From Haematococcus lacustris (Eukaryota > Chlorophyta > Chlorophyceae > Chlamydomonadales > Haematococcaceae): 64,000 nt of DNA. The stretch lies in the NCBI GenBank assembly GCA_030144725.1, contig JASKMD010000008.1, positions 20,162,029-20,226,028 of the forward strand, in the 5' to 3' direction. The position numbers and the translations under genes were made by a program. The notes under the pieces are model-generated. The model was not told where the DNA came from, searched no databases, and saw nothing but the letters and a program-made list of their open reading frames with translations. Below, one piece after another: positions 7,759 through 62,585 of this stretch. Position 1 is the stretch's first letter. Each line of letters begins with the position of its first letter.

Positions 7759-9525
7759 CATACACAGCTGTAAGGCAGGTAGGATGCCTAACTGACCTGC
7801 AACCTGCCATGCTGCATGCGCTGCAGCGCCCACTGTCTGCTCCCCCTCAGTGCCACTGCAGCTGTGACTGAGAGTGAGCTACCTTTGCGGTGTTCGGTGG
7901 CCCCCTTATCAACCCCTATCTACAGCCAGCGCTTGGTCAAGCAGACTACCAGCCGAGCTGGGTTGCGCCTCACACCCTGCCCTGGCACCATGCCGTGTAG
8001 CAGCTGGATGCTGAGTGTCCTCCCCACCACCCCAACTCACCGCCAACAAACCACCTTGCTGCAGCAGTGCCGGGGAGTGCTCATGGGACAGCTTCTCCAA
8101 GGCCTGTGGACACCACACTGCACGCGTTGACAGCGCTGCACAGCTGGCACAGCCGACACCTTCTACCCGGTGGGGACAAGCTAGCTCTACGTGCGTGCAA
8201 CGTGTTGCCCAGGTGAGGAGCCTGTAAGTGCACATATCTGTTCCTAGATGTGCTGCTGATCTGAGCTGTGACACTGCTTGCTCAATTGCTACTACTGGTC
8301 CCAGTTTTGGCAGACTGCGCCACATCCTGATGCTGTCCTGATCCCTGCATTGGCCCAGCCTGCTGCCACAGCCCTGCGATCTGCGGCATAGGGCACAGCT
8401 CTCTGCTCTAGGCCTGCTGGATGGCAGACCTGCAGTGACTGCTCTGCCAAATCGATGTACTCGATTGTGAGCAAGCGCTGGCAGAAGGAGGACACCGCTC
8501 CATGTCGAACGATGGGGGCACAGGACTGGGGAATGACATCTGCCATGAATGTCAGAGCCCGGGCTGCCAGCAGCATCATGTCTGGATTGTGCTCCGCATT
8601 CAAGCATTGTACCTGCAGGGAGGGGAGCAGTGCACGTCACAACCCGAGGCAACCATGCTGCTTGGGCCGATCTAAGACCTACCAGGAGCGGCACGGCGCT
8701 TTCTATAGGAAAGGACGCCAGCGCATCCTCGGACGATATCGAGATGACCTCGCACAGCTCCGTCAGAGCACCCAATTGCGAGCTTTCGTCGTCTACTTGC
8801 CTAAGGTTTGCAAGGATAGCCTGCAGAAGAGCATGCGCGGCGTCCTGGAGCAAGTGGCAAACTGTGCAGCAAGCCCCAGCGGTGCCGCGGACTTACTCTG
8901 AAACGCGAGCCTCCGCCCATCCCTCCCAGTATGTCGTCAAAGCCCGCTCCCAGTTTGCGCAACAGCCCCTGCAGCGCCCTGTAATGCCAGAAAGGACCGG
9001 CAAACTGTGAGCAACGATGGCAACTGCTACGCCACGCCACGCCACGCCACGCCACGCTTACATGCTGGCTGAACCAGGACCAGCGTCGTCCTACGCGTAT
9101 CGGCATCAACAAACGTACAGTCTTGGGACATGGACCGCGCAGGACAGTGGGCCAACAAGCTGTTTGCTAACCTGTTCCTCCTCATCACGCCCGGTGCTCC
9201 TGAGGGACATCTCGGTGAGGTGGAAAGATCGATGGTCCACGGGCTGCGGGGGGGCTGGCCTGGCCTGTTCCTCTGGCGCTGGCGCAGCTACAGATGCCGC
9301 GACAGGCGCGCTTGCTGATGCGTCCGCGTCAGTGGTTGCGGGAGGCTGGGAGAGCGAGGGGGGTTTGGTACGTGCTCGGGAGGGTTGTGCTGGGCTTAAC
9401 GAGCGCTGCCGCTTGTTGCCACGACCAGCAGCTCCCAGGCTCTCTGCCTTTTCAGTACTAGCTCGCCGCTTGTTTTTATTAACAGTTTGGGGCTCCTTGC
9501 TAGCAATGGGGCCTTTCCGTGTCAT
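1..9525 (-). CDS. UPL3: UPL3/KAKTUS-type HECT E3 ubiquitin ligase (3' end off window)
   Basis: Armadillo-repeat HECT ubiquitin ligase of the plant UPL3/UPL4 (animal TRIP12) group, which transfers ubiquitin from an E2 to substrates. Thirteen exons fit with consistent phases: 9525-9172, 9004-8897, 8844-8683, 8612-8430, 8103-8041, 7705-7559, 7151-7038, 6564-5911, 5771-5742, 5662-5290, 4671-2704, 2353-603, 193-1, about 2030 residues so far. Family landmarks are a basic N-terminus (NKNKRRAS), LQGLLRKLGAG, ARM blocks such as LLTIEYIDLAEQSLQ and YLDFFPTSVQRM, then QPFKLRLCRHSSER and IEPLASMTAIEDFLWPR. An acidic linker and KVRVSRKRILESAIK follow, and then the start of HECT, EYFNEVGTGLGPTLEFYTLL. The catalytic cysteine lies beyond the left edge. 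Exon 9 is only 30 nt. Exons 11 and 12 are swollen by Ala/Ser/Gly low complexity. UPL3 versus UPL4 is not resolved. Confidence 0.93.
472..584. repeat. (CCCTG)n microsatellite in a UPL3 intron
   Basis: About 22 perfect copies of a 5-bp unit. They lie in the intron between the exon ending at 603 (AAG then GTGGGT on the minus strand) and the exon starting at 193, so the open reading through it is not coding. Confidence 0.9.
2512..2592. repeat. (CCCCA)n microsatellite in a UPL3 intron
   Basis: About 16 perfect 5-bp units inside the intron between UPL3 exons 11 (ends 2704) and 12 (starts 2353). Confidence 0.9.
6664..6835. repeat. CCTAGGCCTA / GCCGCCAAGCAG intronic repeats
   Basis: Irregular direct repeats built from GGCCTAGGCC, CCTACAGGGG and GCCGCCAAGCAG blocks, many of them self-complementary. 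They sit in the intron between UPL3 exons 7 and 8. No gene seen. Confidence 0.7.
7366..7530. repeat. CTGCTTGCTGC tandem repeats in a UPL3 intron
   Basis: Imperfect tandem array of 11-bp CTGCTTGCTGC-like units followed by a doubled GCCTGCTAGGTTCCGCTGGGT block. It lies between UPL3 exons 6 and 7. A separate AGGC tetranucleotide run occurs at about 7725-7758. Confidence 0.8.
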
Positions 9526-9602: not shown

Positions 9603-10129
9603 CTTTTTGTACAGCACACACCATTTTGAAAGGGCGGTGTGCGAGAAACGTAGCACACACATCCTGTTGTGTGCACCCTTCACACTATGTTAGACCAACT
9701 TGTTTAGCTGTACTGTGGGGGGCAATGTGACGCCAGGGGTGTGCACTGGGTCATCGCCATGGCTCCGCATAGTGTGAGACGGCCGGGGCGCACCGCCTCG
9801 GGCAGCTCGCACGATACGTCTATGCAGGTGGGTGGGATACACACGCGCGGCGACTATCCCGCTAGATCGCTTGGCTACATCGACGCCCGCCCAGAAGTGA
9901 CCGTTTAAGCCGACCCAACGAAAGGCTGGCACACAGGCTTTGGACTAGGTCATGTTGGCATAACCTGCCTTTGTTTGGGTGGGTTGTTATTGCATGCCTA
10001 TTTCAAAGGCCCTACAACAATCCAGAGTGAGGAGCAGCTGGACCATGAGAAGGCCCCCAAAGTGCAGACTGGAAGTCGCAAGCAGGGCAGGTGCACCACC
10101 GCCTGCTGCGCCCAGCCTGGAGCCAGCAG
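9603..10129. other. intergenic, no gene recognised
   Basis: Upstream of UPL3. Contains short GTGTGC/CACACA-rich stretches near 9640-9690 but no ORF with recognisable protein and no RNA gene that I can see. The right part, from about 10000, grades into a Fanzor relic. Confidence 0.5.
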
Positions 10130-10530
10130 CGTGACTAGCCAGTGCGTAGCCTGATGTGGTGCCCGGTAGTGACCCCACATCCTGATACAGCCCCCATGCA
10201 ACAGACTCAGAGCCTGGGCCCAACACTCCCCCGCCAGCCAAGCGCAGCAAGCACACCAAGGCTAAGCAGGCAGCTGAGCCCACCAAGGGCAAAGGCAAGG
10301 TCCACGGCAAGGCTGCTAAGGCAAAGCCAGCACCACAGCCAGGCAGGTGGCTGGACAGGGACTGCAATGCAGCGCTGAACATGCAGCGCATTGGGGAGAG
10401 CAGGTGGCGCCCGCGGGAGCTGTGCTGGTGGCCTGAGCAGGCAGCTCTACCAGCCAAGGGCAAGGAGTACCCTGAGCTGGGCGACAAGCCTCATCAGCTT
10501 GTGTGGAGCTGCTGCATGACACGCAAGTAA
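10130..10530 (+). pseudogene. Fanzor C-terminal relic, DRDCNAALN type
   Basis: The final part of a Fanzor nuclease. An early block reads VRSLMWCP. After a frame change, a Lys/Ala/Pro-rich linker leads to GRWLDRDCNAALNMQRIGES, the RuvC-III block with its catalytic Asp, then KGKEYPELG and a stop at 10528-10530. Nothing N-terminal (RuvC-I, RuvC-II) precedes it on this strand and the two blocks are in different frames, so the copy is dead. It is close in sequence to the relic at 19520-20640, not to the intact copy at 11796-14664. Confidence 0.8.
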
Positions 10531-10617
10531 GGTTATCCAAGCAAGCTGATTGAGCACTGAAGGATTGACTGGCACCTGACCGCAATCATTTCTATGAAAT
10601 TATAGGGAGATAAAGAA

Positions 10618-10830
10618 TTCCGCCGGGAAGTGCCTCACCGCCTCCTTCAGCATCTGGCTGACTGCAACACCCCTGCATTGAAGCCAGCTGCACCATAGGC
10701 CAGTGCCAGGGGACTGTCTGGCCACCGTTGCTTGGCCTGCTTGATGAGCTACAGCCACACATGGTACAACACACTTGGCACACATGTGTAAGGTCAGGTT
10801 TATCAGCAGCAGCAACATGTGGCCAGGTGT
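10618..10830 (-). pseudogene. Fanzor RuvC-II exon fragment
   Basis: Opposite-strand fragment matching exon 3 of the intact Fanzor (12265-12512) and its upstream intron. The blocks WPDSPLALAYGAAGFN and then degraded QKEAV-like sequence are readable, and the intronic ACATGTGTAAGGTCAGG is shared with 12546-12562. It lacks DEFRTS and everything else, so it is a decayed partial copy. Confidence 0.7.
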
Positions 10831-10899
10831 AGAGTTGGCCAGGTGTAAGAGCGCGTTTACAATGGACGGAGTAAAGAGAAAAGAGAAAAGAGATTTTAT

Positions 10900-11043
10900 T
10901 TCTTTTCATCTCTTTCTCTCCATCTCCGTTGGCCCTCCATCTCCATCTCCATCTCCGTTGGACCGTTGGCGGTAGCTAGAGGGTAGAGGAGATGGAGATG
11001 GAGATGGAGGCCAACGGAGATGAAGAGAAAGAGATGAAAAGGA
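10900..11043. repeat. 57-bp inverted repeat (long hairpin)
   Basis: Left arm 10900-10956 and right arm 10988-11043 are reverse complements over about 56 bp with one gap and one or two mismatches, separated by 31 bp. The arms are purine/pyrimidine skewed (CTCCATCTCC against GGAGATGGAG). Transcription would give a long double-stranded stem. No ORF inside. Confidence 0.85.
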
Positions 11044-11159
11044 AAAATCTATTCCATGCAACCATCCGCACTCAATACGCAAGTTAAGCGTACGGAGCAT
11101 TGGTATAAAAGTTACAGCGTCTCAACAGACGGTCGGGACCTATTTTTGACGGTCAACTC

Positions 11160-11382
11160 CTGAACCCCACAGCCCTCATGCAGCAAAATAAAACATGAGT
11201 TGGAATCAAACCAGGCTGCGAGCTCATCATTGTAAAGGCTACTGACCGTGAGCCTACTGCCCACTTCAGCTCAGTCTTCTGGTGTGTGTGCCTGTGCCAG
11301 TGCCTGTGCCTGCGCCACACACATCCCCTTTGTGAGGGGTTCATTGTTTTTTTATATTGGAACTGTCTTGCGCTGTAGCTGG
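11160..11382 (-). ncRNA. candidate Fanzor omega/f RNA region, copy 1
   Basis: Non-coding block directly 3' of a Fanzor tail. The tail stop is at 11383-11385; upstream of it, 11386-11440 reads ADKPLLLKWQRKLQQ. It contains the hairpin CCCCT-CACAA-AGGGG and the conserved strings GGCACACACACCAGAAG, GAGCTGAAGTGGGC and GTCAGTAGCC. The same strings, in the same order, follow the stop codons of three other Fanzor ends in the window (11570-11795, 46051-46275, 50495-50720). In known Fanzor/TnpB loci the guide RNA comes from the 3' end and downstream flank, so I infer an RNA gene or element end here; transcription is unproven. Confidence 0.5.
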
Positions 11383-11569
11383 CTATTGCTGCAGCTTGCG
11401 CTGCCACTTGAGCAATAGGGGCTTGTCGGCTATCTCTCACTCCTCCCTACGTGCCTCTTGTGGTGTTTTGCTGCAAGCTATGCAGGACGTGCGGTCTCAG
11501 CCGGTAAGGTGGTAAGGTGGTGAGGTTTGTTGAGCCATTATGGTGTTGCAGAAGAAACTGACATTGCAA

Positions 11570-11795
11570 CTCATGCTACACCAAAATAAAGCATGAGGAA
11601 TCGATCCGGGCTGCGAGTCCATCATTGTAAAGGCTACTGACAGTGTGCCTCATGCCCACTTCAGCTCAGCCTTCTGGTGTGTGTGCCTGTGCCAAAGCCC
11701 TAGTTGCTCAAAAAAAAACACATCCCCTTTGTGAGGGGTAAAGTATTTGTTTTTGTCGGATTGTCTTGAGCTGTAGCTGACACAACAGGGGCTTG
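11570..11795 (-). ncRNA. candidate Fanzor omega/f RNA region, copy 2 (of the intact gene)
   Basis: Immediately downstream of the intact Fanzor stop (11796-11798). It shares with copy 1 the CCCCT-CACAA-AGGGG hairpin, CACACACCAGAAGGCTGAGC, the GAAGTGGGC block and the CAGTAGCCTTTACAATGATG block, interrupted only by an A-rich run. If the gene is active, this is where its guide RNA scaffold should lie, with the variable guide at the low-coordinate end near 11560. The family rule is established; the assignment is inference. Confidence 0.55.
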
Positions 11796-14664
11796 TCACT
11801 TGCACAACAGGGGCTTGTCGAGTATGGTCACCCAATCCTGGCCTGGCTGGCCTGCCTTTGGCATGGCTGGGCGGTTAGTCCAGTAGCACAGCTCAGTGGG
11901 ACGTGGTCCTGGGCCGACTGCACAGCGGCGGATGTTCAGCGCGGCTGACACGTCCCGGTCATAGAACCTGCACATGGGTGTGGAAGATGCATGCAGTCAA
12001 ATCATGTGCCATGCCATGTGGGATATGCTCATGTCATGCACATGTGTAGGGTTGGGTCTTTGCTTACCTGGTGATGTTGTTAATGCTTGTTAAGCACATC
12101 AGGCCCCGGACTTGGGAACGCTTTGCCTTGCTGTACACTGGCCGCAGCCACCTGCATGGACACATGGGGCAATGCACATTTGTAAGATTCTTGACCCTAC
12201 CTAGTCACCTTGACTCCACCACCTCCCAACACTGCCAACAACTCCCTATCCTCAACCCCCTCACCTGAAGGACTCAGGCGGCGTGTCAAGGAGAGTCTCA
12301 CTGGGGGTGTTGTCGGCTGAGCTGACCCGGCTGGTGCGGAACTCATCCACCAGCACCACACGCTCTGGCCTGAACTGCTTCACTGCCTCCTTCTGCATCT
12401 GGCTGACAGGGACACCCCTGCAGCCAATGGTGCCGCTGCCATTGAAGCCAGCTGCCCCATAGGCCAGGGCCAGGATGCGGTCGGGCCACAGCTTCTGTGC
12501 CTGCTTCTTGACCTGCAGCCACATATAGCAAGACACATTGGCACACATGTGTAAGGTCAGGTATAGCAGCAGCAACAGAGGCGACAACAGCAGCAGCTGG
12601 CCAGGTGAGCTGACTGTGGTTAGCTGCTGCCGAGCTCGTGGGTTAGGGTTATTGGGCCTTACCTTGGCCCAGAACGAAGCCACCACGCGCATCTTGCCAC
12701 AATACAGCCGGAACTTGGCGTTGGCCCAGCGCTTCTTTGAGACCTCGGCCCACATGGCGTCATACGTCTCCAGGACGGTGTCGGCGAACCGCCGGTACGA
12801 GGCCAGCGAGCTGGGCTTGCTGCTGACCTGGGACAGGGCTGTGAGCTGCGGCTTCACCTTGGCCAGCCAGATCTTCGTCGCCTGGGCCTGCCGTGTGATG
12901 CCACTGTCCCGGTAGTACTGCCCGGCGGTTAGCGTCCAGTGGCGCACTGACACCACTGAGCCGTCGGCGCTGCGCTCCTCGTGCGCCACAGTGGCCATAT
13001 TCGTCTTGCCCGGGTCCACGCCCAGCCACTCCGCGTGAAGGTGGGCCAGCGGGTTGACTGCGCCCATGCCCTTGGCCATCCGCGGCAGCTTTGCGGGTGG
13101 CGCTGCAGGCTTGGGCCGCAGGAACATCACGCTGATGGCGACTCCATCGGTGTGCACGACCTGATCGAATCTGTGCTTTGGGCTGGCGAGCTTTTGGCGG
13201 CGAGGGTTAGGCAGCAATGCATCCCACCGGCTGGCCACCTGCAACCACCATAAACACCAGTAAGGCACCTCATCAGCTTGTGTAGGCAGCTGGCTGAAGG
13301 CTCACAAGGCAACTGACAGCACACAAGGCAGCAGCCTGAGCACCAAAGGCTGGCACCTGACTGCAAGGAGCACTCACCTTGCTGTTTGCAGGCCCTTCAA
13401 TGTAGTGGCCCGGCTTCGCTGGGTCAGGTATGGCACCGTTCCTGAACTTGTCCTCGGAGGTGACCCCCTGCTCCGTCAGCACCCCCAGCATGCCGGCGTC
13501 ACTCATCATGCCGTATAGGCCCCGTGTGTCGATGAAGATGTGCCGAGCACGGCACTTGCTGGTGGGGGTGAGTGCATAGGGAGTGGGGGGGCGGGGGGGC
13601 CTCGTCGACAGGTTGGTGGGCTGAGACTGCTCCCAAGGCACCATATCAAGCTGCCAGGCTGCCATGGCTGCCTCCATTTCTCTGGTGGTGTGCACCGCAT
13701 GGCGCAGCAGCCGGCCACGGTTTGCTGGATCCTCCACCCAGTCATCATCCACCTTCTCCCCCTCCCCCAGCCCCAGTAGGCTCCGCTGCAAAGCCACCTC
13801 AGCCTGCATGGCTGCAGTCACCCCCACCCCACCCTCCCCCACCAGCCAGGTGACCTCCAGCCCGCACACCATACGGCGCACGTAGGTGCACTGCCGCTTG
13901 GACCAGGCTGGCAGGTGCCCACCAACCAGCCCCCTCACCCCGAATCGGCGCTGGTGCTCGTTGGTGCCCAGCAGGACCTTGGCCCTGGCCAGGGACACTG
14001 ACTTCTTGAGCCTGCCAGCGAAGAGCAGGGTGAGGATGTTGCCAAAAGCTGTCTGCAGCTGCTGGCCGACGTGGTCCACCATGTTGGTGTCAGACAGGTG
14101 GCGGGGGATTGCTTCGAGGCGGGCACACAGGTCGGGGTGCGCGGCCAGCACGGCAGCGACTGCTGCACTCGGCTGAGTGCCCTCGCCGTCTCCGGGCAGG
14201 CCGCGGCACAGCTGCAGGAACAGATTCCTGCAGCTCAGGTCCGGGATGTCTGCTGCGGAGACTGGGATGTCTGTGTCTGTGTATGACAGTGGCTGGCCTT
14301 GCGCGTCAAGCTGGTCGGCTACGTGCAGGGTAAACAAGCCGCGCACGAGGAAGCCCAACAGCAGGCTGCCAATCACCCCCCGCTCGCTGATGTCCTTCAC
14401 ACGTGGGCGCACAGCCTTGTCAAGGAAGGCGTCCCAAAGCGCTTGCGGGAGGTGGTCGATGAGGTGGGCTAACTTGGCCTTTCTTGCGTGGAACGTATTG
14501 TCCCTGCTGCGGGCAGCGCGGGCCTCTCGTGAAGCCTTCCTTTTGCGCTGTGCCTCGGTCAAGTCGGGTTGGCCTGCCTCGTCGCGGTCAACTATGTTGA
14601 AGTCGGGGTCCTCCGGCACTGCTCTAGGCCCACCCACACCGGTTCGTCTCTTCTTCCTCGCCAT
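11796..14664 (-). CDS. Fanzor RNA-guided endonuclease, apparently intact
   Basis: Eukaryotic TnpB homologue. Five exons, 14664-13378, 13238-12663, 12512-12265, 12151-12068 and 11967-11796, all with GT-AG borders and matching phases, give 788 residues. I chose the ATG at 14664 because it opens a basic, probably nuclear-targeting start (MARKKRRTG); an upstream in-frame extension is hydrophobic. Residues 1-430 form a long N-terminal region. RuvC-I is GVDPGKTN (Asp504), the RuvC-II region LALAYGAAGFN leads to VDEFRTSRVSS (Glu678), and RuvC-III is FYDRDVSAALNI (Asp737). The TnpB-type CxxC zinc ribbon after the TS is missing (SRVSS). A candidate guide-RNA region follows the stop and a repeated motif precedes the start. 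Introns rule out bacterial contamination. Activity is not shown. Confidence 0.85.
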
Positions 14665-14734
14665 AAACAATAGCAACGCGAGGCAGCTACATATACTAAG
14701 GATTTTCGTGCTTGTCACACACATGTCCACATTT

Positions 14735-15101: not shown

Positions 15102-18100
15102 CCTGCAAAGAAAACTGAGCCATGCGAGCAGCGATTGTTGTGGTTGAGGGTGCAAGCCCCGCTGATGGGTGTGATGGCCTTGCCTGTGGTGTGCACAATT
15201 GGCTACAGTTTTTTCATCATCAGCGGCATTATCATCAATGATGTCGGCACCTGTGAGAGGCAGCAGCGCCAGCTCATGATTGCCCTGTTGGTCATCTTTG
15301 GCTGCCTTCACTTCATGGCATGTGAGTGTTCACTGAACAGGAGCTCAGTAGTGGGTCAGCACAGCCCGACATCATGGGCACCTGTGACCAAGTTTGCCAG
15401 CCAGCCTGCCTGCCTGCCTGCCCACAGGCTTCACTGACACATACACGGCATCGAATCAGCAGAAATTCTGGTGAGCCCTGGATGCAGCACTAGGGGACAT
15501 GCTCTGATCAGCTTTCAAGAGTGGATCCACGGGTCAGGAGCAGCAGCAGGCAGGCAGGCCGGGCAGCAGCAACACCGGCTGCTGAACACCTTGTCACAGG
15601 GTGTTCATCCTACCATTCTGGGGACCTCTCTGCTTCTCCTTGCCAACCGACCACGATAAGGACAGGTGCAGTGATGCTGATGCAAGATGCTCACCAGGGC
15701 CACCAATCAGGGCTAGGGCCAGCAAAGTGGTCGAGTTATTGGGCTATTTAGCTTCTGGGCTACAGCTGCACACACTTCAACAATCATCCCTCCATAAGGG
15801 TCTGCCAGGCAATGAATAGACTATGCGAAGTTGAGCATCATAAGGGACCGTGCCAATGCTCTATGACAATTGCCTATCAATGACACAGCCATAGCAAGGT
15901 AGTTGTATGCTCTCTCCCGTCTATAGCTCCTGTCTATAGCATACATCTTGCGGGCCTATACATATAGCCCTAGTAGTACACCTATAGCCTAGTAGTATAC
16001 CTATAGCCCTAGTAGTAGCCCTAGTAGTACACCTATAGCCCTAGTAGCTCTATAGCCCTGCCCACTCACCTGCTTACTTGGCTCAGCGCTCCTGACCCTC
16101 TGCACCTCTCCCACCACAGAGTGTATGAGTTCTACTACTTGCGGATCAGAGACTACGTGCACGCAGTGCTGTCCACCGCGACCTTCCTGCTAATCGTCAT
16201 CTTCACCAACCCCGTAGGTCAAACAGCTCAGCCCCTCCAGCAGCCCCGCGGGTCTCACGTCAGCTGCTAAACCAAGACCAGCTCAGCCAGTGCTGCATCA
16301 GCCAGTGCTGCATCAGTCGAAGCCGGTTTGCTCCCTGCTCCTAGGTGTGCATGTGCCTCTTCCCCAGTGGCCTGGCTGACGGCACCTCCCGCTTCGATGC
16401 GTCCATCGTGCGCACCGTGCCTGTGGTGGTGGCCATCATCATGGCGATGCTCATGGTCTGCCTGGGGGAACCCAGGCAGATGCTAGGCTTTCAGAATGTG
16501 CCGGAAACATGCCCTAGCATCGACCGCCAGCTGGGCGACAACCCCATCTACGCAAAGTACCCGGCGCCACAAGGTACAGCCTGCAGGGTCAGGCCCAGGG
16601 AGCATAGTGTGGGTGGGTATGGTTGAGCATGGTATGGCACGGTTGGGCATGGTATGGCATGACTGGGCATGACTGGGCATGGGTGGGTGTGGTATGGCCT
16701 CACTGGAGGGTGCAGTTAGTATAGCCCCAGGCTGCTCGAACCCAGCTCTTCAGCAGCCTCTCCTGGACCACACAGCAGACCGCAAGTTTTCCAGGCAACC
16801 TACACCTACTATGCTTGAGGTACCTACGTTAAGCCTAACTCAACCTGTACCTAACCAACGCCTAATGGCCTGGAACACCTAGTGGCTTGGAATGCCTAGT
16901 GGCCTGGTGTCCTGCCGATAGCGCTGCTCAGTGATCTGGGGAGTATGCTGGCGGCAGGTGCCTGCACCACTGCTGATGCCAGGGTGGTGGCTAGTGGGCG
17001 GCGGGCTGCTGCTGGCACGCTACCACAGCCTGCTTCAGGCAGCTGTGCGTCTTCTGTGCACATCCACTGGCCTGCATGAGCACTTTGGAACTAGTAGCCT
17101 CCCCCATATCTGCTACACTACGTTCACTTGTGCTGAGTAGGACACTCTGCGCTGACCTGACATGCGCTGACCTGAACACCCACTGGCCTGCCACCATGCG
17201 CTGACCCGTACATGGCTGGCCTGCTGCCCGCTGCACAGACAATATCCCTGAGGGTGAGGAGGGTGATGAGGAGATGGCCAGCCACCCGCTGCCGCCCCGG
17301 CTAGCCACTCATCCCAGCATGTACAGCCGTGGGCCCAGCAGCCGGGACGGCGGCGGCTACCGCACCCCCCCTCAGGGCGAGATGCTCCCCAAACATGAGC
17401 CACGGCTGCGCACCAGCCAGCCCCAGGCACCCAGGTAAGGCCCCCTCCACCTGGCCTTGAAGAGGCCTAGAGGGCATGGGCCAGGGTCAGGGCGTCAGAG
17501 CCAGGTTGTTCCAAGCATGCCAGCAGCCAGCACGGCAACTGCTGGGCAACTGCTGGGTTGCTTGACGATTCTGGCCAGCTCTAATTCTCACTGCCACTTG
17601 CTGGTCACTGCTGCACCCAATGTGTGAGATATGGCTGTAGCACGACCCAAGCATTGTGTGCCAAACCATAGCTGCATGTCTAGGCCTGTGTCTGTGACAG
17701 TGTGTGGGGCTGGGGCTGTGTGTCAGTGACATGCCTCGGGCTGTGTGGGACCTATCACAGCCATGTCATGTGCTCACATTGAGATGAGGCAAACGTGCCC
17801 ACCGTTGACCAGGGTTGGCTGCTTGATCATAGGTCCTCGGGCTGTGTGTCTATGGCCTGTGATTGGCTCAAGTCTTCAGCCTTGTCAGCAGCACAGGGAA
17901 CGAGCAAAGTGCAGGTCATGAGGGTGGCCACTGTACTGTGCTGCCCAGTGCCGCTGTCACATCACTAGTGTCCTACCTCCCTCAGCACTGTACCAGTCAC
18001 ATTACCCGCCATTGTACCCTGCTCAGCGCGGCTCCTATCCATGACACACTCCTGGTGTGCACCCGCTACATGCATCTGCGCCATGCCAAGGACTGGGTGC

Positions 18101-19107: not shown

Positions 19108-19350
19108 CACTGGCATGTGCAGGTGGTGGAGGGGATGAACTGGGTGTCAAGCCATCACTACGGCCTGGTAAAGGGAATGGCGGTATTCCTGGGAGAGGGC
19201 TGCTTCAGCCAGGGTGGGTGGAAGGCCAAGGGGTTGTGGGAAGGGTTTTGCAAGGTGGTGGAGCAGCCTAGCAGGCCCAGCACGTTAGTCAGACCTGACA
19301 GGCTAGTGATTTTAATTGAGTTCCGCACCAGCACAGTGGGTCCCCTACTA
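19108..19350 (+). pseudogene. Fanzor RuvC-II exon relic
   Basis: One exon's worth of Fanzor after an AG acceptor: VVEGMNWVSSHHYGLVKGM, VFLGEGCFSQGGWKAKGLW and VILIEFRTSTV. In this last block the DEFRTS aspartate has become isoleucine but the glutamate remains. No RuvC-I or RuvC-III accompanies it. The order matches the truncated copy at 19520-20640 (VFFGNAGIGTRGGWGAKAV then VDEFRTSRVSS), which lies in the opposite orientation. Confidence 0.75.
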
Positions 19351-19519: not shown

Positions 19520-20640
19520 CTACTGTGCTACTGGCTGCTGGGCTTGGGCCTTGGGGGCTCGCTCTCGCAGCATCTTGAAGCCCAGTGCTGGGTATTCCTT
19601 GCCCTGGGCAGGAAGTCTTCCTCGGTGTTGCCACCTGCACAGCTCCAGTGGGCGCCACTTGCTCTCCCCTGCCCGCTGGAGGTTGAGGGCTGCGTTGCAA
19701 TCCCTGTCCACCCATTTGCCCAGCTTCCCAGGGGTGGCCTGGGCCAGCCAAGGGCACCACATGAGGCCCCGCACTGGCGCCTCAAACCGCTTGCTCCAGG
19801 CTGACCGCAACAAGCGGTCCTGCACCTGACCTGGCTTGGGCTTCCAGCCTTCAAGCCTGGTGGGCTTGCTGCGGTCCAGCTCCTCCTCACAGGGCTGGGG
19901 GCTGTTCAGGATTGAGCTGACCCTGCTGGTGCGGAACTCATCCACTGTCACCACCTTGCCTGGCACCCTGTCTGTTGGCTTGCCGCTGTTGGGCCTCTCC
20001 ACCACCTTGCGGCAGGCCTGCAGCACAGCCTTGGCCCCCCACCCCCCCCGGGTGCCAATGCCTGCGTTGCCAAAGAACACCACCAGCTGCTTGCGGGTCC
20101 CCCACTCCTGCTGGGACACGCTGGCTGCCTCCTCCTCCAGCTGCATGGCACACAAGGCACACACAAAGCGCATGACATCCTTGGCAGAACTGGGGACATG
20201 GGCACCTAGCAGGTCACATGTGGGGGGGCAGTCATCAGCCTGTGGTCCTGCCCCTTCCCCCCTACCCTTGGACACTCCCACCTTCACGAAGTAGCGCTCC
20301 AGGACCTTCTCCTGCGCGCCATGCAGCCTCATCCTTTGCTCAGCCCACTTGGGATGCAGGTACTCCCCCCACACTGCATCCCAGGTGGCCAGGGTGACGG
20401 CCACATGCCGCTGGATGGCCAACAGGGAGCAACCCACCTGATGAAGCCCTTCAGGTAGCACTTGACGAACTGAATCCTCGAGTTGGCCGCCTCCTTCAGC
20501 CTAGCCTTACGCGCCCTCCCTTGTGGCGATACGGGGCCTACCCAGCCCAGGTCGTCAGGCTTGCCCTTGGGCTTTGATTTAGGCTGCTTGGGATTGGGCT
20601 GTTTGGGCTCTTTCGCGCCCTTGCGCTTCTTGCCCTTCAT
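19520..20640 (-). pseudogene. Fanzor lacking RuvC-I
   Basis: A long readable copy of the second Fanzor type. It starts with a basic MKGKKRKGAKE at 20640, then jumps with a frame change to VAVTLATWDAVWGEYLHPKW. After an apparent intron it continues through VVFFGNAGIGTRGGWGAK, VTVDEFRTSRVSS, RGLMWCPWLAQATPGK and KWVDRDCNAALNLQRAGES to a stop at 19520. The segment with the first catalytic aspartate (GVDPGKTN in the intact copy) is absent between the N-terminus and the helical block, and the frame breaks at the same place. The internal deletion therefore removed an essential residue. RuvC-II Glu and RuvC-III Asp survive. Confidence 0.8.
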
Positions 20641-20696: not shown

Positions 20697-20752
20697 CTCG
20701 CTACTTACATTGGCAACAGTTACATTGGCAACAGTTACATTGGCTGCTAATC
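20697..20752. repeat. 15-bp tandem repeat TTACATTGGCAACAG
   Basis: Three units just before a Fanzor fragment. The reverse complement (AATGTAACTGTTGCC units) occurs at 35848-35900, so the unit travels with a dispersed element. Confidence 0.75.
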
Positions 20753-21300
20753 GTAGGCCTGACAGGCTGCTAATCGTGGATGAGTTCCGCACCAGCCGTG
20801 TCAGCTTGACTGTGCATGCCCACCAGCCTTGTGAGCTACACCTTCCACGTGACCGGCTTAGGCCAGCAGACTGGGTACCCCCAGCAGGCCAGGTTATCCA
20901 GCGGCAGGTGCGCCCAGCCTGGAGCCAGTGGCATGCTGAATATGGGCGGGACCTGATGTGGTGCCATGAGGTGCCGCCCAACCCCCTCCCCCCCCCGCCC
21001 AGGCCCCCCCTTCCCCCGCCCAGGCCCCCCTCCACCTCCCCAGGCCCCCCCCGCCCAGGCCCCCCCTCCCCCAGCCCAGGCCCTCCTCCACCTCCCCAGG
21101 CCCTCCTTGCCCAGGACCCCCCACCTCCTCCTGCCCAGGCCCAGCCCCTTCCTGCTGCACCTGGCCCAGTGCCACGACCCCAGGCCCCCCAATGGGGCAG
21201 GTGTCTGGACCGGGACACGAACTCAACCCAGCATGCTACTCGTGTCCGAACACGAACTGGCCGTGCTTGGCTGCCTTCTCGCGCCTGGCACTTACTGAAA
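20752..21300 (+). pseudogene. Fanzor C-terminal relic with proline-rich insert
   Basis: Reads RPDRLLIVDEFRTSRVS, then VRPAWSQWHAEYGRDLMWC, a long Pro-rich low-complexity stretch, and GRCLDRDTNSTQHATRVRT, a decayed form of the DRDxNAA RuvC-III block. The N-terminal two thirds are absent. The Pro-rich stretch replaces the Lys/Ala linker seen at 10207-10340. Confidence 0.75.
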
Positions 21301-43706: not shown

Positions 43707-43834
43707 GAAACCGACCCCTGGTAGTAGGACGGCTGTAACTCTGCAAAAATTATGCTAGATGGTTTACGATGTAGGCAACCCGGCCAGCTACCTTCCCCCC
43801 CTCCAGAATAATCATGCAGTCAGTAGGCCGTGCA
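43707..43834. repeat. dispersed repeat C, copy 1
   Basis: 128 bp starting GAAACCGACCCCTGG and ending CAGTCAGTAGGCCGTGCA match 49726-49865 in the same orientation. The LINE begins exactly where the similarity ends, which helps place its 5' truncation point. Confidence 0.8.
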
Positions 43835-45571
43835 GCCTGCTGCTGGGGTTCCTTGTGGGATGGGGCTTCTTCACCTCAGGTTTGGGGCATGGGCAACACC
43901 TCCCTCCTGGTGCTCACCGTCAAGGCAGCACGGTTGCGCCTCACGCAGCTACAGCGGGCCCGCGTCGACCCCACCTATCCTGCTGGTGGGGGCCTATGGC
44001 CAGCCCTTTGGGGACCACGCCCGCTGCCGGGGGCTGAGCCAGCTCAAGTGCTAGCCGCCGCGGGAGCTGGCCTTCGGACCCTGGAGCAGCGCTGGCTAGA
44101 TAGCGCCACCCTCCTGGCAGCGCAGCGGGCAGCGGGGGAGCGGGAGCAGCAGGGCAGGGATGTAGAGGAGCTGCTCCCGGAGGAAGTGCAGGGCAGCCAG
44201 ACACCGCGGTGGCGTGCCACCAACGCTAGACCTCCTCCGCGGCCCACCCCGGAGCTCAGGGCGGTGCAGCGGGCACAGCGGCAGCTCGACGCTCAGCTCC
44301 AACGGGGAAGGGGGGGCAGGCACGGCGGCAACAGGCGGGCAGGCGCGCTGCCAGCTGTCGGGCATGGAGCTCTGGCTGGCATGGTAGACGAACTAGCCCG
44401 CTCAGCCCAAGCCGGCCAGCCTTGCCTAGAGGTGTGGCAGGAGCTGCTGGACCCCACCCTCCGCCGGGAGCATGTCATTGTGGCGTGGCGGGTGCTGCAC
44501 GGGAGCCTCATGGTGGGGGCCATGTGGGGCCACATCCTGAAAGAAGCTGCGGCCCCTGCTTCTTCAGCCTGTCGCCTTTGCCAGTTGGGACCCCTGGAGA
44601 CACTCACCCATGCCTTTCTTACCTGTCCCTCCGTGGCTCCCGCTTGGGAGTGGGTGCTGGACGTGTACGGCCGCCTCACAGGCACCCGCCCTCCCTCAAG
44701 CGACGCTCTCCTGCTCCTCAGCGGGCGCCCTACGCACAACGAGGCTGGCCCCTTTCAGCCCCCCGATGCCCACCTGTGGCTGCGCCTACGCGTGGCCTAC
44801 TTGGGGTCGGTGTGGCGCATCCGGAGCTTGGGCCCAGCCGCAGCGCTTCAGCCACAGTCGCTCGCCCATCGGGTGGCGCAGGGAGTCATCTTCACCCTAT
44901 CGTCGGCGGTGCAACGGGACTGGTACCGGGTGGGTAGGGACATCCGGGTGGGGCTGGGCGGCGCCGTCCCGTCCACGTGGTTCAAGGGGAGAGACCCGCG
45001 GCTGGATGAGAGGAAGTTTGCGAGCCTGTGGCCTGCAGCGTCGGGAGGGTGGTTCCAGCGGCAGCAGGGGGAGCTGGTTGTGCGCCTGTCGTTGCAGTGG
45101 CCTGTGCCCGCCCCCCCCATCCTAGGCGCCGCAGCGGAGCCCGGCTAGGGGCTGTCCGTACCGGGGGTTAGGGTATGGGAGTGGGAGCAGTGCCTTTTTC
45201 TTGTTTAGGCTGGGCAGTTTAGAGCGCTGGGGTGGTTGGGTTGGGGATGGGAGGGAAAGGGAAGAGGGGCGCTGTTTTTGCCCCTTGGGTAGCTAGGGGG
45301 AGCTCTCGCGGGTGGGGGTTGCCCTCGCGGGTGGGGTTTCTTCTGGGGCTGGGTCGGGTGAGTGGGTCGTTTTCTCGTCAGCGTGTAGTAGGAGGGCTGG
45401 TGTCTTTTGGGGGCCTTCTAGTCTTCGACTCCTGTCTTGTGTGGTCTTATCGCTTGGTTTTGCCTGCATTTCTCTCCTCTGACGGATTCCTCTCCTAAAC
45501 TCTCACCTAGTGCGGTATTGGTATCCTTCTCTTCCTCTGTAACTCTCCTCCAAAAAAAAAAAAAAAAAAAA
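43835..45571 (+). mobile_element. 5'-truncated LINE (non-LTR retrotransposon)
   Basis: An open frame to 45148 encodes the C-terminal part of a LINE ORF2: an Arg/Gln-rich linker, then the reverse-transcriptase-associated zinc knuckle CRLCQLGPLETLTHAFLTC (C-x2-C-x9-H-x4-C), then a Trp-rich C-terminus. The endonuclease and polymerase domains are missing. A GT-rich 3' UTR follows, ending in 20 A's at 45552-45571. Truncated 5' end plus poly(A) tail is the classic product of incomplete target-primed reverse transcription. No convincing target duplication is visible. Confidence 0.85.
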
Positions 45572-45594: not shown

Positions 45595-46050
45595 GACGAG
45601 CCGACAGGTCAGCCGCGCTCAACATTCGTCGCTGTGCAGTCGGACCAATCAGCCACGCCCCACTGAATTGTGCAGATGGGAAGGTTCGATTTGGATTTGG
45701 AGCGCGTGATTTGGATTTGGAGCGCGTGATTTGGACCGCGTAGTTTTTGCTCTTGCGGACTAGCTTGGTGTCCTTCAAGTGGTGGTAAAGAGCCATCAGA
45801 GTCCAATGCTTGTTGTTAAACATCTGAGTTTCGTTATCGGCCATCGCAGCTAACGCGCAATTAAATTGCTCGGTTTTGGGTTAATTACTTTTCATCATAT
45901 TCCATCATGCTTGATCATATCTCAAAGATTAATCCGGGCGCGCCTTAAAGGCCACCCAACCAGCCTAAGCCAAGCAGGCCAGGTTAGGATTGGGTATACG
46001 TGCCGGACAAGGCCCTGTTGCGCAAGTGGCGGTGCAAGTGGCGAAGATAG
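45595..46050 (+). pseudogene. Fanzor C-terminal relic, split by an insertion
   Basis: The RuvC-III block survives as DRSAALNIRRCAVGP (45610-45654; the second Asp of DRD is lost). About 250 bp of unrelated AT-richer sequence follows, with a tandem GATTTGGATTTGGAGCGCGT. The end of the protein then reads DWVYVPDKALLRKWRCKWRR with stop at 46048-46050. On the minus strand the inserted part opens with MADNETQMFNNKHWTLMALY at 45844, an ORF start I do not recognise. The relic starts just after the LINE poly(A) tail. Confidence 0.75.
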
Positions 46051-46275
46051 CCAGCTCCAGCAAGTCAAATCCAACGTAAGATAAGTGAACGCCTCACACG
46101 GGGCATGTGAGCAAGAGCAGGGGATGTATGTGAGCAAGAGGTAACTCAAGCTTCTGTAAAAGCAGTCATGGAGGCACACAAACCAGATGGGCGGAGCTGA
46201 AGTAGGCATCAGGCAAGTTGACAGTAGCCCTTGCAGTAATGTGCCTGCAGCCTGTGGTCAATCAAGCCTATCGCT
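46051..46275 (+). ncRNA. candidate Fanzor omega/f RNA region, copy 3
   Basis: Begins right after the Fanzor stop with CCAGCTCCAGCAAG, against CCAGCTACAGCGCAAG in copy 1. It keeps the hairpin position with altered bases (GCC-TCACACGG-GGC in place of CCCCT-CACAA-AGGGG), then GGCACACAAACCAGATG, GAGCTGAAGTAGGC and GACAGTAGCC in the same order as copies 1 and 2. Conserved in four places although the protein ends differ. Confidence 0.5.
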
Positions 46276-46633
46276 TTATGTTGGAGTAGCTAAAGGGAAG
46301 TCCAGAAGTTGGCGGACTATACCATATATACACCACCGCCGAAACCCGCTCCGGGTTTTCATGGTTTCACGGCTTTGGCGATATAACAAGGTCATTGGCG
46401 CTCTAGTAGCCAGCAGAGCCACGCAAGAATTGTCGATAGCAGCTGCTATTTAGGGTCAGGCATAGGGGCTACTGGCCAAGGCAGCATCCCGCTGCTACTC
46501 GCGACTCACGATTCGACCCACCATTCGTCCACCACGCGTTTACAACCTTGCATCACTTTATGTTCAAACCTCATCTGGGCGTGCTGGCGACTTTGTATGC
46601 CCGCTCGAGTCAACCCAACCCAAAGAACAAGCA

Positions 46634-46773
46634 ATGGCGCAGTGGGTCGGCAAAGACGTCCTAATCCCTGCAAATGCGTGGAACCCCCCTGAGGACGGGC
46701 CTGTCTCCGGCTATATTCTTAAGGCAACAGCACCCACCAAGCGATACCCCGAGGGGCGACTAGAAATTGTGAC
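46634..46773 (+). pseudogene. truncated first exon of the MAQWVGKD element gene
   Basis: Starts MAQWVGKDVLIPANAW and reads to RYPEGRLEIVT, identical apart from Asn/Asp at one site to the exon at 51067. The similarity stops abruptly at 46773 and a short unrelated tail follows, so it is a 3'-truncated copy. Upstream sequence back to 46051 is shared with 50495-51066, including a GAAACCC-GGGTTTTC inverted repeat near 46337. Confidence 0.8.
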
Positions 46774-50489: not shown

Positions 50490-50494
50490 CAGCA

Positions 50495-50720
50495 AGTCAA
50501 ATCCAACGTAAGATAAGTCAACGCCTCACAAGGGGCATGTGAGCAAGAGCAGGGGATGTATGTGAGCAACAGCTAACTCAAGCTCCTGTAATAGCAGTCA
50601 TGGAGGCACACAAACCAGATGGGCGGAGCTGAAGTAGGCATCAGGCAAATTGACAGTAGCCCTTGCAGTAATGTGCCTGCAGCCTGTGGTCAATCAAGCC
50701 TATCGCTTTATGTTGGAGTA
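50495..50720 (+). ncRNA. candidate Fanzor omega/f RNA region, copy 4
   Basis: Near-identical to 46064-46275 and the fourth instance of the conserved 3' block. The hairpin reads GCCTCACAAGGGGC, pairing GCC with GGC again. It has been cut off from its Fanzor tail by the nested insertion. Confidence 0.45.
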
Positions 50721-51066
50721 GCTAAAGGGAAGTCCAGAAGTTGGCGGAGTAGACCATATATACACCACCGCCGAAACCCTCTCCGGGTTTTCATGCTTTC
50801 ACGGCTTTGGCTATATTACAAGGTCATTGGCGCTCTAGTAGCCAGCAGAGCCACGCAAGAATTGTCGATAGCAGCTGCTATTTAGGGTCAGGCATAGGGG
50901 CTACTGGCCAAGGCAGCATCCCGCTGCTACTCGCGACTCACGATTCGACCCACCATTCGTCCACCACGCGTTTACAACCTTGCATCACTTTAAGTTCAAA
51001 CCTCATCTGGGCGTGCTGGCGACCTTTGTATGCCCGCTCGAGTCAACCCAACCCAAAGAACAAGCA

Positions 51067-51760
51067 ATGGCGCAGTGGGTCGGCAAAGACGTCCTAATCC
51101 CTGCAAATGCGTGGGACCCTCCTGAGGACGGGCCTGTCTCCGGCTATATTCTTAAGGCAACAGCACCCACCAAGCGATACCCCGAGGGGCGACTAGAAAT
51201 TGTGACGACGACCCGGGCAAAGTGAGACACCAGGCACATGAACAACCAGAACAGTTGTAACAGGCTATTGACAACATGTTTTTGCTCCTGTAGGTTTTTG
51301 TTCCCCGCGCACACCTTCCCCTGCGATTGGGTGCTCGATAGCACCCACAACGCCCCTCAGCGTACTCCACGCAAATCAGGGTCGCGCACTACGACCACCA
51401 CCACTACTCCACAGCCCGGCCTGTCTGGAGCGAGCATCGGTGCAGCCACCCACGACGTGAATCCTCCCATCCAACAGCCGCCCTTTCATTCATCCCAGCA
51501 CGCCATGCCACAGGGTAGCAGCAGCCCTACCCAGCCTCCAGAAGTGAAGCCGGAGCCACACGAGCTAGTGAGCCCGGGCAGGGTCCTGCGCTCTCGCGCA
51601 GGGCCGCTGCTGGCCCCTCCACCCAGCCCTGGCCTCGGCACCCCAGATGCTAGCAGGGGTCTACACACTCGCACCACGCCAGTGGCCATTCGGCACGTGA
51701 CCTTTGAGGGTCAGGAGCGTGAGCCAGAGCAGCTGGGAGGTCTGGATGCGACCTGCAAGG
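51067..51760 (+). CDS. MAQWVGKD element gene, 5' part, unidentified
   Basis: Exon 1 51067-51221 (MAQWVGKDVLIPANAW, SGYILKATAPTKRYPEGRL) splices in phase to exon 2 from 51294 (FLFPAHTFPCDWVLDSTHN, then a Pro/Ser-rich region with KPEPHELVSPGRVLRSR). A donor-like AAG/GTGACG lies at about 51760. Beyond that no continuation is clear, so it may be 3'-truncated. The preceding roughly 570 bp is shared with the partial copy at 46051-46773. I do not recognise the family; repetition beside Fanzor ends argues for a transposon gene. Confidence 0.5.
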
Positions 51761-52809: not shown

Positions 52810-55800
52810 ACTGACTCCAGTACTGCATTGTTGCCATCACACCCAGCACACTGCCCGCTGGTTGAGCCTGACCTGACCTGTGCCACCTGTGTTGCAGCTG
52901 ATTGACCCGTACTGGACGCTGCTGCCGCCAGCCCTGCAGCTCCTCTACCAGTTCCACCCTCGAGCCCAGTGCAATGTGTGGAGGGGCATCATGGCTAGCA
53001 CCATACTGCGCACATGGGCATGCCGCCTCACCTACTCCTACTTCCGCAGGTGGGCAGCTTGCAAGTGGTCTCAAGGACACGCAACGCGGATGGCAGGAGT
53101 GACATAGAGTGACAGGGTGTGACCCAGTGTGACTAGGTAGTGTTTGAAACCAGGAAGCCCTCACACCCTGGACCAGTGCTGTCTGCAGCTGGCCTGGCCT
53201 GGGGTGTGTGGGGGTGTGTGACTCATCATCATTACATGGCATCAGCCTGCATGTGCCCCTGTCAAACACCACCGGCACTGCTGCAGCACCTCAGGTTCAC
53301 TCCACACCAGTGCAATACTGGCTTAATGCGGGCGCCGGGGCTTATCGGTGTGTGTGTGTGTGTGTAGGGAGGAGTGGCAGTTTGGTGCACGTGAAGACTG
53401 GCGCTACTCTGACCTGGCTCGTCAATTCACCCGTCACTGGTGGTGGCTCAGCTTCCTGGCCACCTACCTGGTCCAGCACGCCATGCTGGTGGGCATCACG
53501 CTGCCCCTGGCGGCTGTGTACAGCAGCAGCGCGGCCTGGGGCCCTTGGGACACCGCAGCCAGCATCGTGGCGCTGTGCGGTGGGTGCTGCGCGACCTGGC
53601 GGCAGCAGGCAGGCAGGCAGGCCGCTGTGGACTGCGCAGGCAGGCAAGGGTCGAGAGGGAACCCAAGGAAGCCATACTGTTGCGGGGTACTTCTTGCTGA
53701 GGCACTGGTGGCATTGGCTGTAATGCTGGCCAGGCCGTAGCGGGGCTGGGAGCCCCTAGCCTGGGTCTGGGTCTTGGTCCTGAGGCCAGCAGGAAGTGGC
53801 TGGGACTGTGGGCTGGGCAGTGGCTGGGCCCAAGCAGGCAGGGCCACTGTGGGTTGTGCAGGCAGGCAGGGAGGGCACTGTAGACTGGGCAGTGGCTGTG
53901 CAAGTAGGGAAGATCAAGGCGGCTGTGAGGCTGATGTGGGGTGCTCCGTGATGCTGCTGGCCAGGGAGGGTCCAGGAGGGCTTGGCCAGGACTGCAGGAA
54001 GGGTTTGAAGGGAGGGACCCAGAGGCCTGATGCTACTTGGTCCAAGGCCGTGGCTTCCTGACTTCTTCCTCCTTCTCGCCATAGCTGTTTGGTTGTGTGA
54101 GCATGCTCTAGCACCCTGCTTGTGGTGTCCCTTCCCTTCCCTTGGCCGCTGCAATCTGCTGCGTGTTGCTGCTGTGTGTCAGCGCACCCCCTCATGCCTC
54201 CCTGGTGCCTGCCTGCCTCACCCCTGGCTGCCCCACGCTTGGCTGCCTCACCCCTGGCACCTCTTGCTCCCTCACCCCTGGCACCTCTCGCTGCCTTACC
54301 CCTGGCACCTCTCGCTGCCTCACCCCTGGCACCTCTCGCTGCCTCACCCCTGGCACCTCTTGCTCCCTCACCCCTGGCACCTCTCGCTGCCTTACCCCTG
54401 GCACCTCTTGCTGCCTCACCCCTGGCACCTCTCGCTGCCTCACCCCTGGCACCTCTCGCTGCCTTACCCCTGGCACCTCTTGCTGCCTCACCCCTGGCAC
54501 CTCTTGCTGCCTCACCCCTGGCACCTCTTGCTCCCTCACCCCTGGCACCTCTCGCTGCCTTACCCCTGGCACCTCTCGCTGCCTCACCCCTGGCACCTCT
54601 CGCTGCCTCACCCCTGGCACCTCTTGCTCCCTCACCCCTGGCACCTCTCGCTGCCTTACCCCTGGCACCTCTTGCTGCCTCACCCCTGGCACCTCTTGCT
54701 GCCTCACCCCTGGCACCTCTTGCTGCCTTACCCCTGGCACCTCTCGCTGCCTCACCCCTGGCACCTCTCGCTGCCTTACCCCTGGCACCTCTTGCTGCCT
54801 CACCCCTGGCACCTCTTGCTGCCTCACCCCTGGCACCTCTCGCTGCCTTACCCCTGGCACCTCTTGCTCCCTCACCCCTGGCACCTCTCGCTGCCTCACT
54901 CTTGTCAGGCATGGTTACCAGCTGGGTGGCAGACAACCAGCTGCGTGACTTCATGCTGGGCAACAAGCTGCGCCTGCATGTGGGCCTGGAGCCGCTGCTG
55001 CTGCTGGACTCAGGGCTGTGGCGCTACAGCCGCCATCCAAACTACTTTGGCGAGCAGCTGTACTGGTGAGCCCTGGAGGCTGGAGGGCGCCAGGGGGGCC
55101 AGGGAGGCCTGTAGGGGAGGGGGCATGTTGGGGGGTGCAGGGGGTGAGCGGGCAGGGTGAGGGTTAGGGTTACGTTGGTTGGTTGGTAACCCTTGCCCTA
55201 GGCAGGGAGGACAATTATAACAATGACAATTGTTGGGTTACCTTAGCCCTATGCAGGGAGGGATAGGCTCATCAGTACCGTGCCTGTGTGTCATGTATGT
55301 GGCAGCCACTCCTGCTGCTGCTGCTGATGATGATCATGATGCCGCTGGTGGTGATGGTGCAGGTGGGGCATGTCCCTGTTTGCTGTGGGTTTGGGCCAGC
55401 CCTGGATGATGATGGGGACCTTGTTCAACAGCCTGTGCATGGTGAGCGGCAGACCCTGTCCAGCTCAGCCCTGGCGTGTACCCCTACACCTAGCCCTAGC
55501 CCCACCAGTGGCATGCACCAGGGTGCATGTGGCAGCACCCCACAGGCCCCACAAGGTCAGCAGGGCCCTCCCTCGCTGCAAGCGTTTGTCGTGCACATGC
55601 ATCTTTCCCGCCCACCACTTCCATTCCCTTTGCACATGCACAAATGCACTTATGCATGCCCTCCTCTTGGAGCAGTGTGCTCATGCTGGTCTTGCCAGCT
55701 GCATGGACAACCTGCAAAGTGCAGCACTATGCTGCATGCCACATAATGCTGGATGGTGTACCAACAAGTAGTTTGCATGTGTTTGGGTGTGTGACAGATT

Positions 55801-62474: not shown

Positions 62475-62585
62475 CGCGGGCTCTGGGCCTGATGTGCGTC
62501 AACAACGAGCACCACAGACAATACCACCGTCAATACCGCGATCGTCATCGCAACCCCCAGCCCCACGCCCTGCCCCTGCCCTTGG

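What the first reader, a model, noticed from the sequence alone, without database searches (positions are those of the whole stretch)
11796..14664. Apparently intact intron-containing Fanzor nuclease gene
Five exons join in phase to 788 residues with Asp504, Glu678 and Asp737 in RuvC-I, -II and -III contexts. Most neighbouring copies are dead, so one copy with every junction and catalytic residue in place stands out as a possible live RNA-guided endonuclease.
Basis: partly seen in the sequence, partly recalled or inferred. Interest (0 to 1): 0.9.

Follow-up and report, generated by a model that had tools for sequence, protein, structure and literature searches.

The report
Alga Fanzor gene lacking zinc finger
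This stretch of the green alga Haematococcus lacustris carries a gene, predicted to have five exons, whose protein is predicted to fold like Fanzor, the RNA-guided DNA cutter of eukaryotes; it keeps the three acidic cutting-site residues but lacks the zinc finger of well-studied Fanzors, as do the relatives examined from the same alga, and whether it would cut DNA is untested.

The parts
13378..14664 (-). exon 1 (residues 1-429): N-terminal part, aligned with the WED/REC half of SpuFz1 in the models
   Evidence: structure alignments start at model residue 57-74
12663..13238 (-). exon 2: RuvC-I, D504 codon 13016-13014 in GVDPGKTN
12265..12512 (-). exon 3: RuvC-II, E678 codon 12344-12342 in VDEFRTSRVSSAD; S685 and D688 sit where the first CxxC would be
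12068..12151 (-). exon 4: former zinc-finger region; C723 and S726 stand in the place of the second CxxC
11796..11967 (-). exon 5: RuvC-III, D737 codon 11954-11952 in DRDVSAALN, and a shortened C terminus
11781..11819 (-). 17-bp string repeated at a 22-bp offset, where this copy's reading frame ends early compared with the family's basic tail
11570..11795 (-). 3' non-coding part of the element, candidate guide-RNA (omega-RNA) region; homology with the second copy ends at 11570
   Evidence: 163 of 199 aligned bases identical between 11570-11775 and 11175-11386
11570..11597 (-). terminal hairpin CTCATGCT...AGCATGAG, taken as the element's 3' end; bases from 11569 down would be the guide if this is an omega-RNA (inference)
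11175..11428 (-). 5'-truncated second copy: C-terminal codons (DKPLLLKWQRKLQQ, stop; read by eye from the alignment) plus the same 3' end with its hairpin
10609..10772 (-). broken A-type Fanzor piece (between RuvC-I and RuvC-II)
10064..10488 (+). D-type Fanzor C-terminal piece, RuvC-III only
19559..20556 (-). C-type Fanzor piece with RuvC-II and -III, no RuvC-I; its RuvC-II lacks the CxxC too
20749..20964 (+). C/D-type RuvC-II piece
19117..19350 (+). C-type piece ending at RuvC-II

Best explanation
The minus strand at 14664-11796 carries a gene, predicted to have five exons, for a 788-residue protein that is predicted to fold like Fanzor1, with D504, E678 and D737 of a RuvC nuclease site in place and without the C4 zinc finger, and that would likely cut double-stranded DNA under the guidance of an RNA copied from the 3' end of its own mobile element. 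Shown: the reading frame, the triad, the DPG and displaced-E signature, the missing cysteines, the many relatives in the same alga, and a 3' sequence with a terminal hairpin shared by two copies. Predicted: the splicing and the fold. Inferred from characterised Fanzors: that the 3' region is transcribed as the omega-RNA, that the guide is the flanking DNA beyond the hairpin, that cleavage needs a short motif beside the target, and that cutting helps the element to persist or spread. In this branch the loop between RuvC-II and RuvC-III would have to hold its shape without a C4 zinc site. Whether this copy still works is open, because it has lost the family's basic C-terminal tail.
Against: No PDB sequence match beyond a hexokinase at E 0.28-0.6, for the protein or for a profile of 27 relatives; no Pfam match at E<1 for the window protein; no TnpB-type NCBIfam match. 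Models are weak (pLDDT 44 and 52) and the RuvC-III part is unresolved; with 9cez and 9ceu the last pair (677/539) is one residue out of the E678/E541 register. The C4 motif, called strictly conserved by PMC3627910, is absent. The fold of the 3' region is weak evidence: z -2.07 for the own copy (6 of 200 shuffles as good), -0.78 for the second copy (42 of 200), and the consensus fold of both does not keep the terminal hairpin. No 5' end was found, and no repeat of 7-9 bases between the 3' flank and the upstream 736 bases. The C-terminal tail is lost.
Confidence: 0.8

Rival explanations
1. A Fanzor gene recently inactivated: the family is real, but this copy is a relic that kept its triad by chance and was carried along passively.
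For: C-terminal tail lost beside a short tandem repeat; the other pieces of the family found in the window are broken; five private changes at 439 positions invariant among 17 other A-type proteins.
Against: 788 codons, four introns and the triad stand without a frameshift or internal stop; its departure from conserved columns (4 of 288) is no larger than that of many siblings; third-position GC 0.79 against 0.49 at second positions, as in coding DNA.
Confidence: 0.4
2. An RNA-guided binder rather than a cutter: with the zinc finger gone, the lineage was turned into a DNA-binding or transposition helper.
For: No C4 pattern in the 296 proteins in hand, a large change at a place that in SpuFz1 contacts the omega-RNA (NUC domain, PMC10432273 section 10).
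Against: D, E and D are kept in 68 of 119 listed relatives and in 23 of 27 near-full-length ones, with fixed spacings; a binder would be expected to lose them.
Confidence: 0.12
3. The zinc finger is present in the real protein but is missed by the predicted splicing, or another metal site replaces it.
For: No RNA evidence; the exons are predictions; C and D subfamilies keep two conserved cysteines in the interval (28 of 28 rows with a letter at one column, 27 of 27 at the other), and 9 of 57 rows have four or more Cys+His there.
Against: The replacing residues are coded inside exons on both sides (S685/D688 in exon 3, C723/S726 in exon 4), the B subfamily at about 50% identity has none of the missing cysteines either, and the first CxxC is absent as a pair from all 261 motif occurrences, with both cysteines missing in 260.
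Confidence: 0.06
4. Not a Fanzor: another RuvC/RNase H-fold protein with chance resemblance.
For: No significant PDB sequence match and no curated Pfam match; low-confidence models.
Against: The first seven structure matches are Fanzors over most of the protein, far above the Cas12-type rows; both Fanzor fingerprints are met.
Confidence: 0.04

Closest known systems
Fanzor1 of Spizellomyces punctatus (SpuFz1; PDB 8gkh, 9cez, 9cey, 9ceu)
   Same: Best structural match along model residues 57-682; D, E, D of RuvC; E678 falls on or next to E541 (residues from PMC10432273 section 10)
   Different: No CCCC zinc finger; 788 residues against 638; [quoted passage not shown]
Guillardia theta and Parasitella parasitica Fanzors (PDB 9cer; 9cf0, 9cf1)
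   Different: 8-14% sequence identity; whether they have the C4 finger was not checked here
Chlamydomonas reinhardtii CRe-1, CRe-2, CRe-3 Fanzor1 elements
   Same: Green alga, multi-exon Fanzor1 gene (five exons in CRe-1, ten in CRe-2 and -3, EST-supported), frequent 5'-truncated copies with intact 3' ends (PMC3627910 section 8); a 5'-truncated copy with the 3' end lies at 11175-11428 here
Giant-virus proteins of Tetraselmis virus 1 and others
   Same: Best viral structure matches (A0A6G6XPP9, no name given, E 3.0e-13; A0A2P0VP66 of Tetraselmis virus 1, E 3.9e-11; 17% identity each)
   Different: Uncharacterised; zinc finger not checked

Membership tests
Fanzor (Fanzor1 type) | DPG in RuvC-I (fingerprint 1 of PMC10711439) | tested here: met
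   D504-P505-G506; D504 and G506 invariant, P505 at 90% or more, in 57 aligned proteins
Fanzor (Fanzor1 type) | Displaced RuvC-II glutamate, six residues before the zinc-finger position (fingerprint 2) | tested here: met
   E678, six residues, S685; the finger itself is absent, so the position is read from the register
Fanzor (Fanzor1 type) | D-X(125,275)-[TS][TS] and RD of RuvC-III (PMC3627910) | tested here: met
   176 residues between D504 and T681; T681-S682; R736-D737
Fanzor (Fanzor1 type) | C4 zinc finger between RuvC-II and RuvC-III ('strictly conserved' in PMC3627910; in 'many' TnpBs and Fanzors in PMC10711439) | tested here: not met
   S685, D688, C723, S726 in the four places; pattern in 0 of 296 proteins, of which 226 hold a RuvC-II motif. 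Under the strict 2013 motif this is therefore not a member; under the 2023 fingerprints and by fold it is Fanzor-type
Fanzor (Fanzor1 type) | Fold of solved Fanzors | tested here: met
   on sibling P0002 (93.5% identical), low-confidence models; RuvC-III part not covered
Fanzor (Fanzor1 type) | PF07282 (Cas12f1-like TNB) at the curated cut-off | tested here: inconclusive
   window protein: none at E<1; 11 of 27 relatives below cut-off; in the four siblings the match runs over the right interval; nine of 120 rows of the C/D-type search carry it precomputed
Fanzor (Fanzor1 type) | omega-RNA encoded at the 3' end of the element | tested here: inconclusive
   3' sequence shared by two copies and ending at a hairpin, weak fold statistics, no Rfam match there
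Fanzor (Fanzor1 type) | RNA-guided cleavage of double-stranded DNA | not testable with these tools
   needs bench work
Fanzor (Fanzor1 type) | Place in the Fanzor1 clade of a tree, as against Fanzor2 | not tested
   no sequences of other Fanzors were obtained; the '1' rests on the best structure matches (SpuFz1, GtFz1) and on all green-algal entries of PMC3627910 Table 1 being Fanzor1
Helitron2-borne Fanzor1 element (CRe type) | Helitron 5' and 3' ends, insertion after TTTT | tested here: inconclusive
   a 3' hairpin is present; no 5' end found and no repeat of 7-9 bases between the 3' flank and the upstream region

The most novel reading that the evidence does not exclude
Haematococcus lacustris harbours hundreds of whole and broken copies of a Fanzor lineage that has done without the C4 zinc finger: a naturally zinc-free, RNA-guided eukaryotic nuclease, in at least four subfamilies, that still cuts and still spreads.
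Probability: 0.4. Interest if true: 0.72.

Novelty: new variant of a known kind. Interest (0 to 1): 0.47.

Why it matters
At least one published survey searched with a pattern that requires both CxxC pairs (PMC10711439, passage), so a branch without them would be passed over by such a search. If active, it would show that the C4 zinc finger of the NUC domain is dispensable in a eukaryotic RNA-guided nuclease, and it offers a set of natural variants, with graded loss of the cysteines, for testing what that domain does. The alga is grown for astaxanthin, and its gene annotation contains many models fused with pieces of these elements.

Tried and rejected
Sequence-level proof of family failed: phmmer and profile searches of PDB gave only a hexokinase at E 0.28-0.6; NCBIfam gave nothing relevant. 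Profile-to-profile comparison with a canonical green-algal Fanzor was not possible because no such sequence was obtained; the three protein searches returned, in the 120 rows listed each, only Haematococcus lacustris (263, 373 and 461 hits in all; the rest not listed), so other hosts are not excluded.

Searches for relatives or for a 3' motif in viral contigs, bacterial and archaeal genomes and phages gave none. The idea that TTGACCGTCAAAA marks the element's 5' end was left: five matches with up to two mismatches against 0.32 expected, three of them beside Fanzor sequence, but no boundary follows from it. Rfam matches at 10864-11044, all below the gathering scores, lie on or beside an inverted repeat of CTCCAT units and are not an omega-RNA.

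P0001 (99% identical) was at first taken for an independent copy; its pieces map to this window at 20640-10603, so it is this locus. It was left out of the counts; it is still in the counts.

A description of the stop region as a 22-bp tandem duplication was corrected: the exact repeat is 17 bp at a 22-bp offset.

Full report
Observation. The minus strand of the window, 14664 to 11796, was read out from the sequence. The gene-strand stretch contains four matches to the donor string [AC]AG|GT[AG]AG, exactly the four donors used; both strands of the whole window contain 18. Intron 2 has 150 nt and no stop in frame; aligned relatives do not have those 50 residues, but their models come mostly from one annotation, so this is support and not proof. 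The GC contents of first, second and third codon positions are 0.64, 0.49 and 0.79, a coding-like pattern.

Host and copy number. A protein search returned 263 relatives; the 120 listed are all named Haematococcus lacustris. The top one, QJQ45_025517 (P0001), maps in eight pieces to this very window between 20640 and 10603 and is a chimeric gene model of this locus that fuses an upstream C-type Fanzor fragment, this gene and downstream debris. The closest independent relatives are P0003 (93.9% over 775 residues) and P0002 (93.5% over all 788). Of the 119 listed relatives other than P0001, 68 align with D, E and D in the three places; of the 27 that cover at least 90% of the protein, 23 do. So this copy is one of many with the triad in place. 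Two more searches with C-type sequence gave 373 and 461 hits, again only this species among the 120 rows listed each. Ordered motif searches separate four subfamilies by the distances D-E and E-D: A mostly 174/57-59, B mostly 177/53-55, C mostly 185/79, D mostly 185/127-137.

The missing zinc finger. PMC3627910 (section 4 part 1) gives the Fanzor/TnpB motif as D-X(125,275)-[TS][TS]-XX-[C4 zinc finger]-X(5,50)-RD and calls it strictly conserved. PMC10711439 (passages; section 23) says that many TnpBs and Fanzors have the finger, and names DPG plus a glutamate six residues before it as the fingerprints of Fanzors. The protein has DPG, the displaced E, TS and RD, but S685, D688, C723 and S726 stand in the four cysteine places. 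Of the 296 proteins in hand 226 contain a RuvC-II motif. Among 261 occurrences long enough to read, 260 have neither cysteine of the first pair and one has only the first; the C4 pattern occurs in none of the 296. These are related copies from one species, so this is one or a few events, not hundreds. Subfamilies C and D keep two conserved single cysteines in the interval (28 of 28 and 27 of 27 rows with a letter there); of the 29 A and B rows 22 have exactly one cysteine, 5 none and 2 two. This looks like a graded loss; a different metal site in C and D is not excluded (9 of 57 rows have four or more Cys+His in the interval). By the strict 2013 motif the protein fails; by the 2023 fingerprints and by fold it passes. 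I file it as a zinc-finger-less variant of Fanzor; the assignment to Fanzor1 rather than Fanzor2 was not tested with a tree.

Is this copy intact? Mostly. In an alignment with 32 chosen relatives it departs from 4 of 288 conserved columns, within the range of the others (0 to 19). But its last residues are DKPLLCK and stop, while 43 of 44 relatives with a recognisable end run on into a basic tail such as KWQRKLQQ. Where the tail should be, a 17-bp string is repeated at a 22-bp offset. The truncated second copy at 11175-11428 still reads the tail. The start codon is also uncertain (in-frame ATG at 14724; the stretch is shared by three other models).

Element and guide RNA. The second copy shares 163 of 199 aligned bases with the 3' region of the gene, and the likeness stops behind a hairpin, CTCATG...CATGAG, at 11570 and 11175. 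That is what the 3' end of a Fanzor element, and of its omega-RNA, should look like, and 5'-truncated copies with intact 3' ends are typical of the Chlamydomonas CRe-1 to CRe-3 elements (PMC3627910 section 8). The support from folding is weak (z -2.07 and -0.78), and the consensus fold of the two copies does not retain the terminal hairpin. No 5' end or target-site duplication was found. The guide would be the flanking bases from 11569 down; this is inference.

Mechanism. By analogy with SpuFz1, the protein would bind the transcribed 3' end of its element, use the adjoining bases as guide, open DNA next to a short motif and cut it with the RuvC site. For a mobile element this would favour its retention or copying. 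The RNA and guide steps are unproved here; the cutting step is supported only by the triad and the predicted fold.

Literature. Searches for Haematococcus with Fanzor and with TnpB listed only the Auxenochlorella paper (PMC12633428), whose passages mention Fanzors in green algae but not these. A search for Fanzor, zinc finger and lack found 22 papers and listed 10; I opened only two of those ten, PMC3627910 and PMC10432273. Of the Haematococcus genome paper PMC10400597 I saw passages only; it reports annotation from homology and transcriptomes and does not mention Fanzor in those passages. Multi-exon Fanzor1 genes in green algae are in print since 2013, so the introns are not new.

Verdict. 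A Fanzor-type gene with one unusual feature shared by the whole branch examined. Activity of this copy is about as likely as not, and untested.

Noticed in passing
window 20640-10603: The public gene model QJQ45_025517 (1220 aa) fuses a C-type Fanzor fragment, this gene and downstream debris across 10 kb; many other listed Haematococcus 'hypothetical proteins' carry unrelated Pfam domains beside Fanzor sequence.
   Followed up: partly
window 16028-16267 (+): ORF with a weak match to the membrane-protein family DUF679 (PF05078, 21.6 bits, below the cut-off of 25); a hydrophobic ORF at 15102-15437 (+), not tested, may belong to the same gene, head to head with the Fanzor element; CCTAGTAGTA repeats lie between them.
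   Followed up: partly
window 7912-8892 (-): ORF with TRIP12-like E3 ubiquitin ligase repeats (PF25579, 43.7 bits, above cut-off).
   Followed up: no
window 43775-45148 (+): 457-aa ORF with a weak reverse-transcriptase zinc-binding match (PF13966, 25.0 bits, cut-off 27.5), perhaps a LINE; very weak A-type Fanzor C-terminal pieces (E 0.007-0.04) lie behind it at about 45603-46026.
   Followed up: no
window 10896-11047: Long inverted repeat (39-nt arms, 92% complementary, plus 23-nt perfect arms) of CTCCAT units; many sub-threshold microRNA-precursor matches in Rfam, likely an artefact of the hairpin.
   Followed up: partly
window 62561-64000: Satellite-like tandem array with about 94-bp offsets, about 90-98% alike, running to the window end; strong GC and AT skew there.
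   Followed up: no
window 46058-46773 and 50490-51206: 717-bp direct duplication, 97.6% identical; further repeat pairs at 32038-32275/34560-34797 (97.9%) and 30505-31057/33447-34046 (77%).
   Followed up: no
window 54213-54907: Tandem array with about 72-bp offsets, about 88-92% alike.
   Followed up: no
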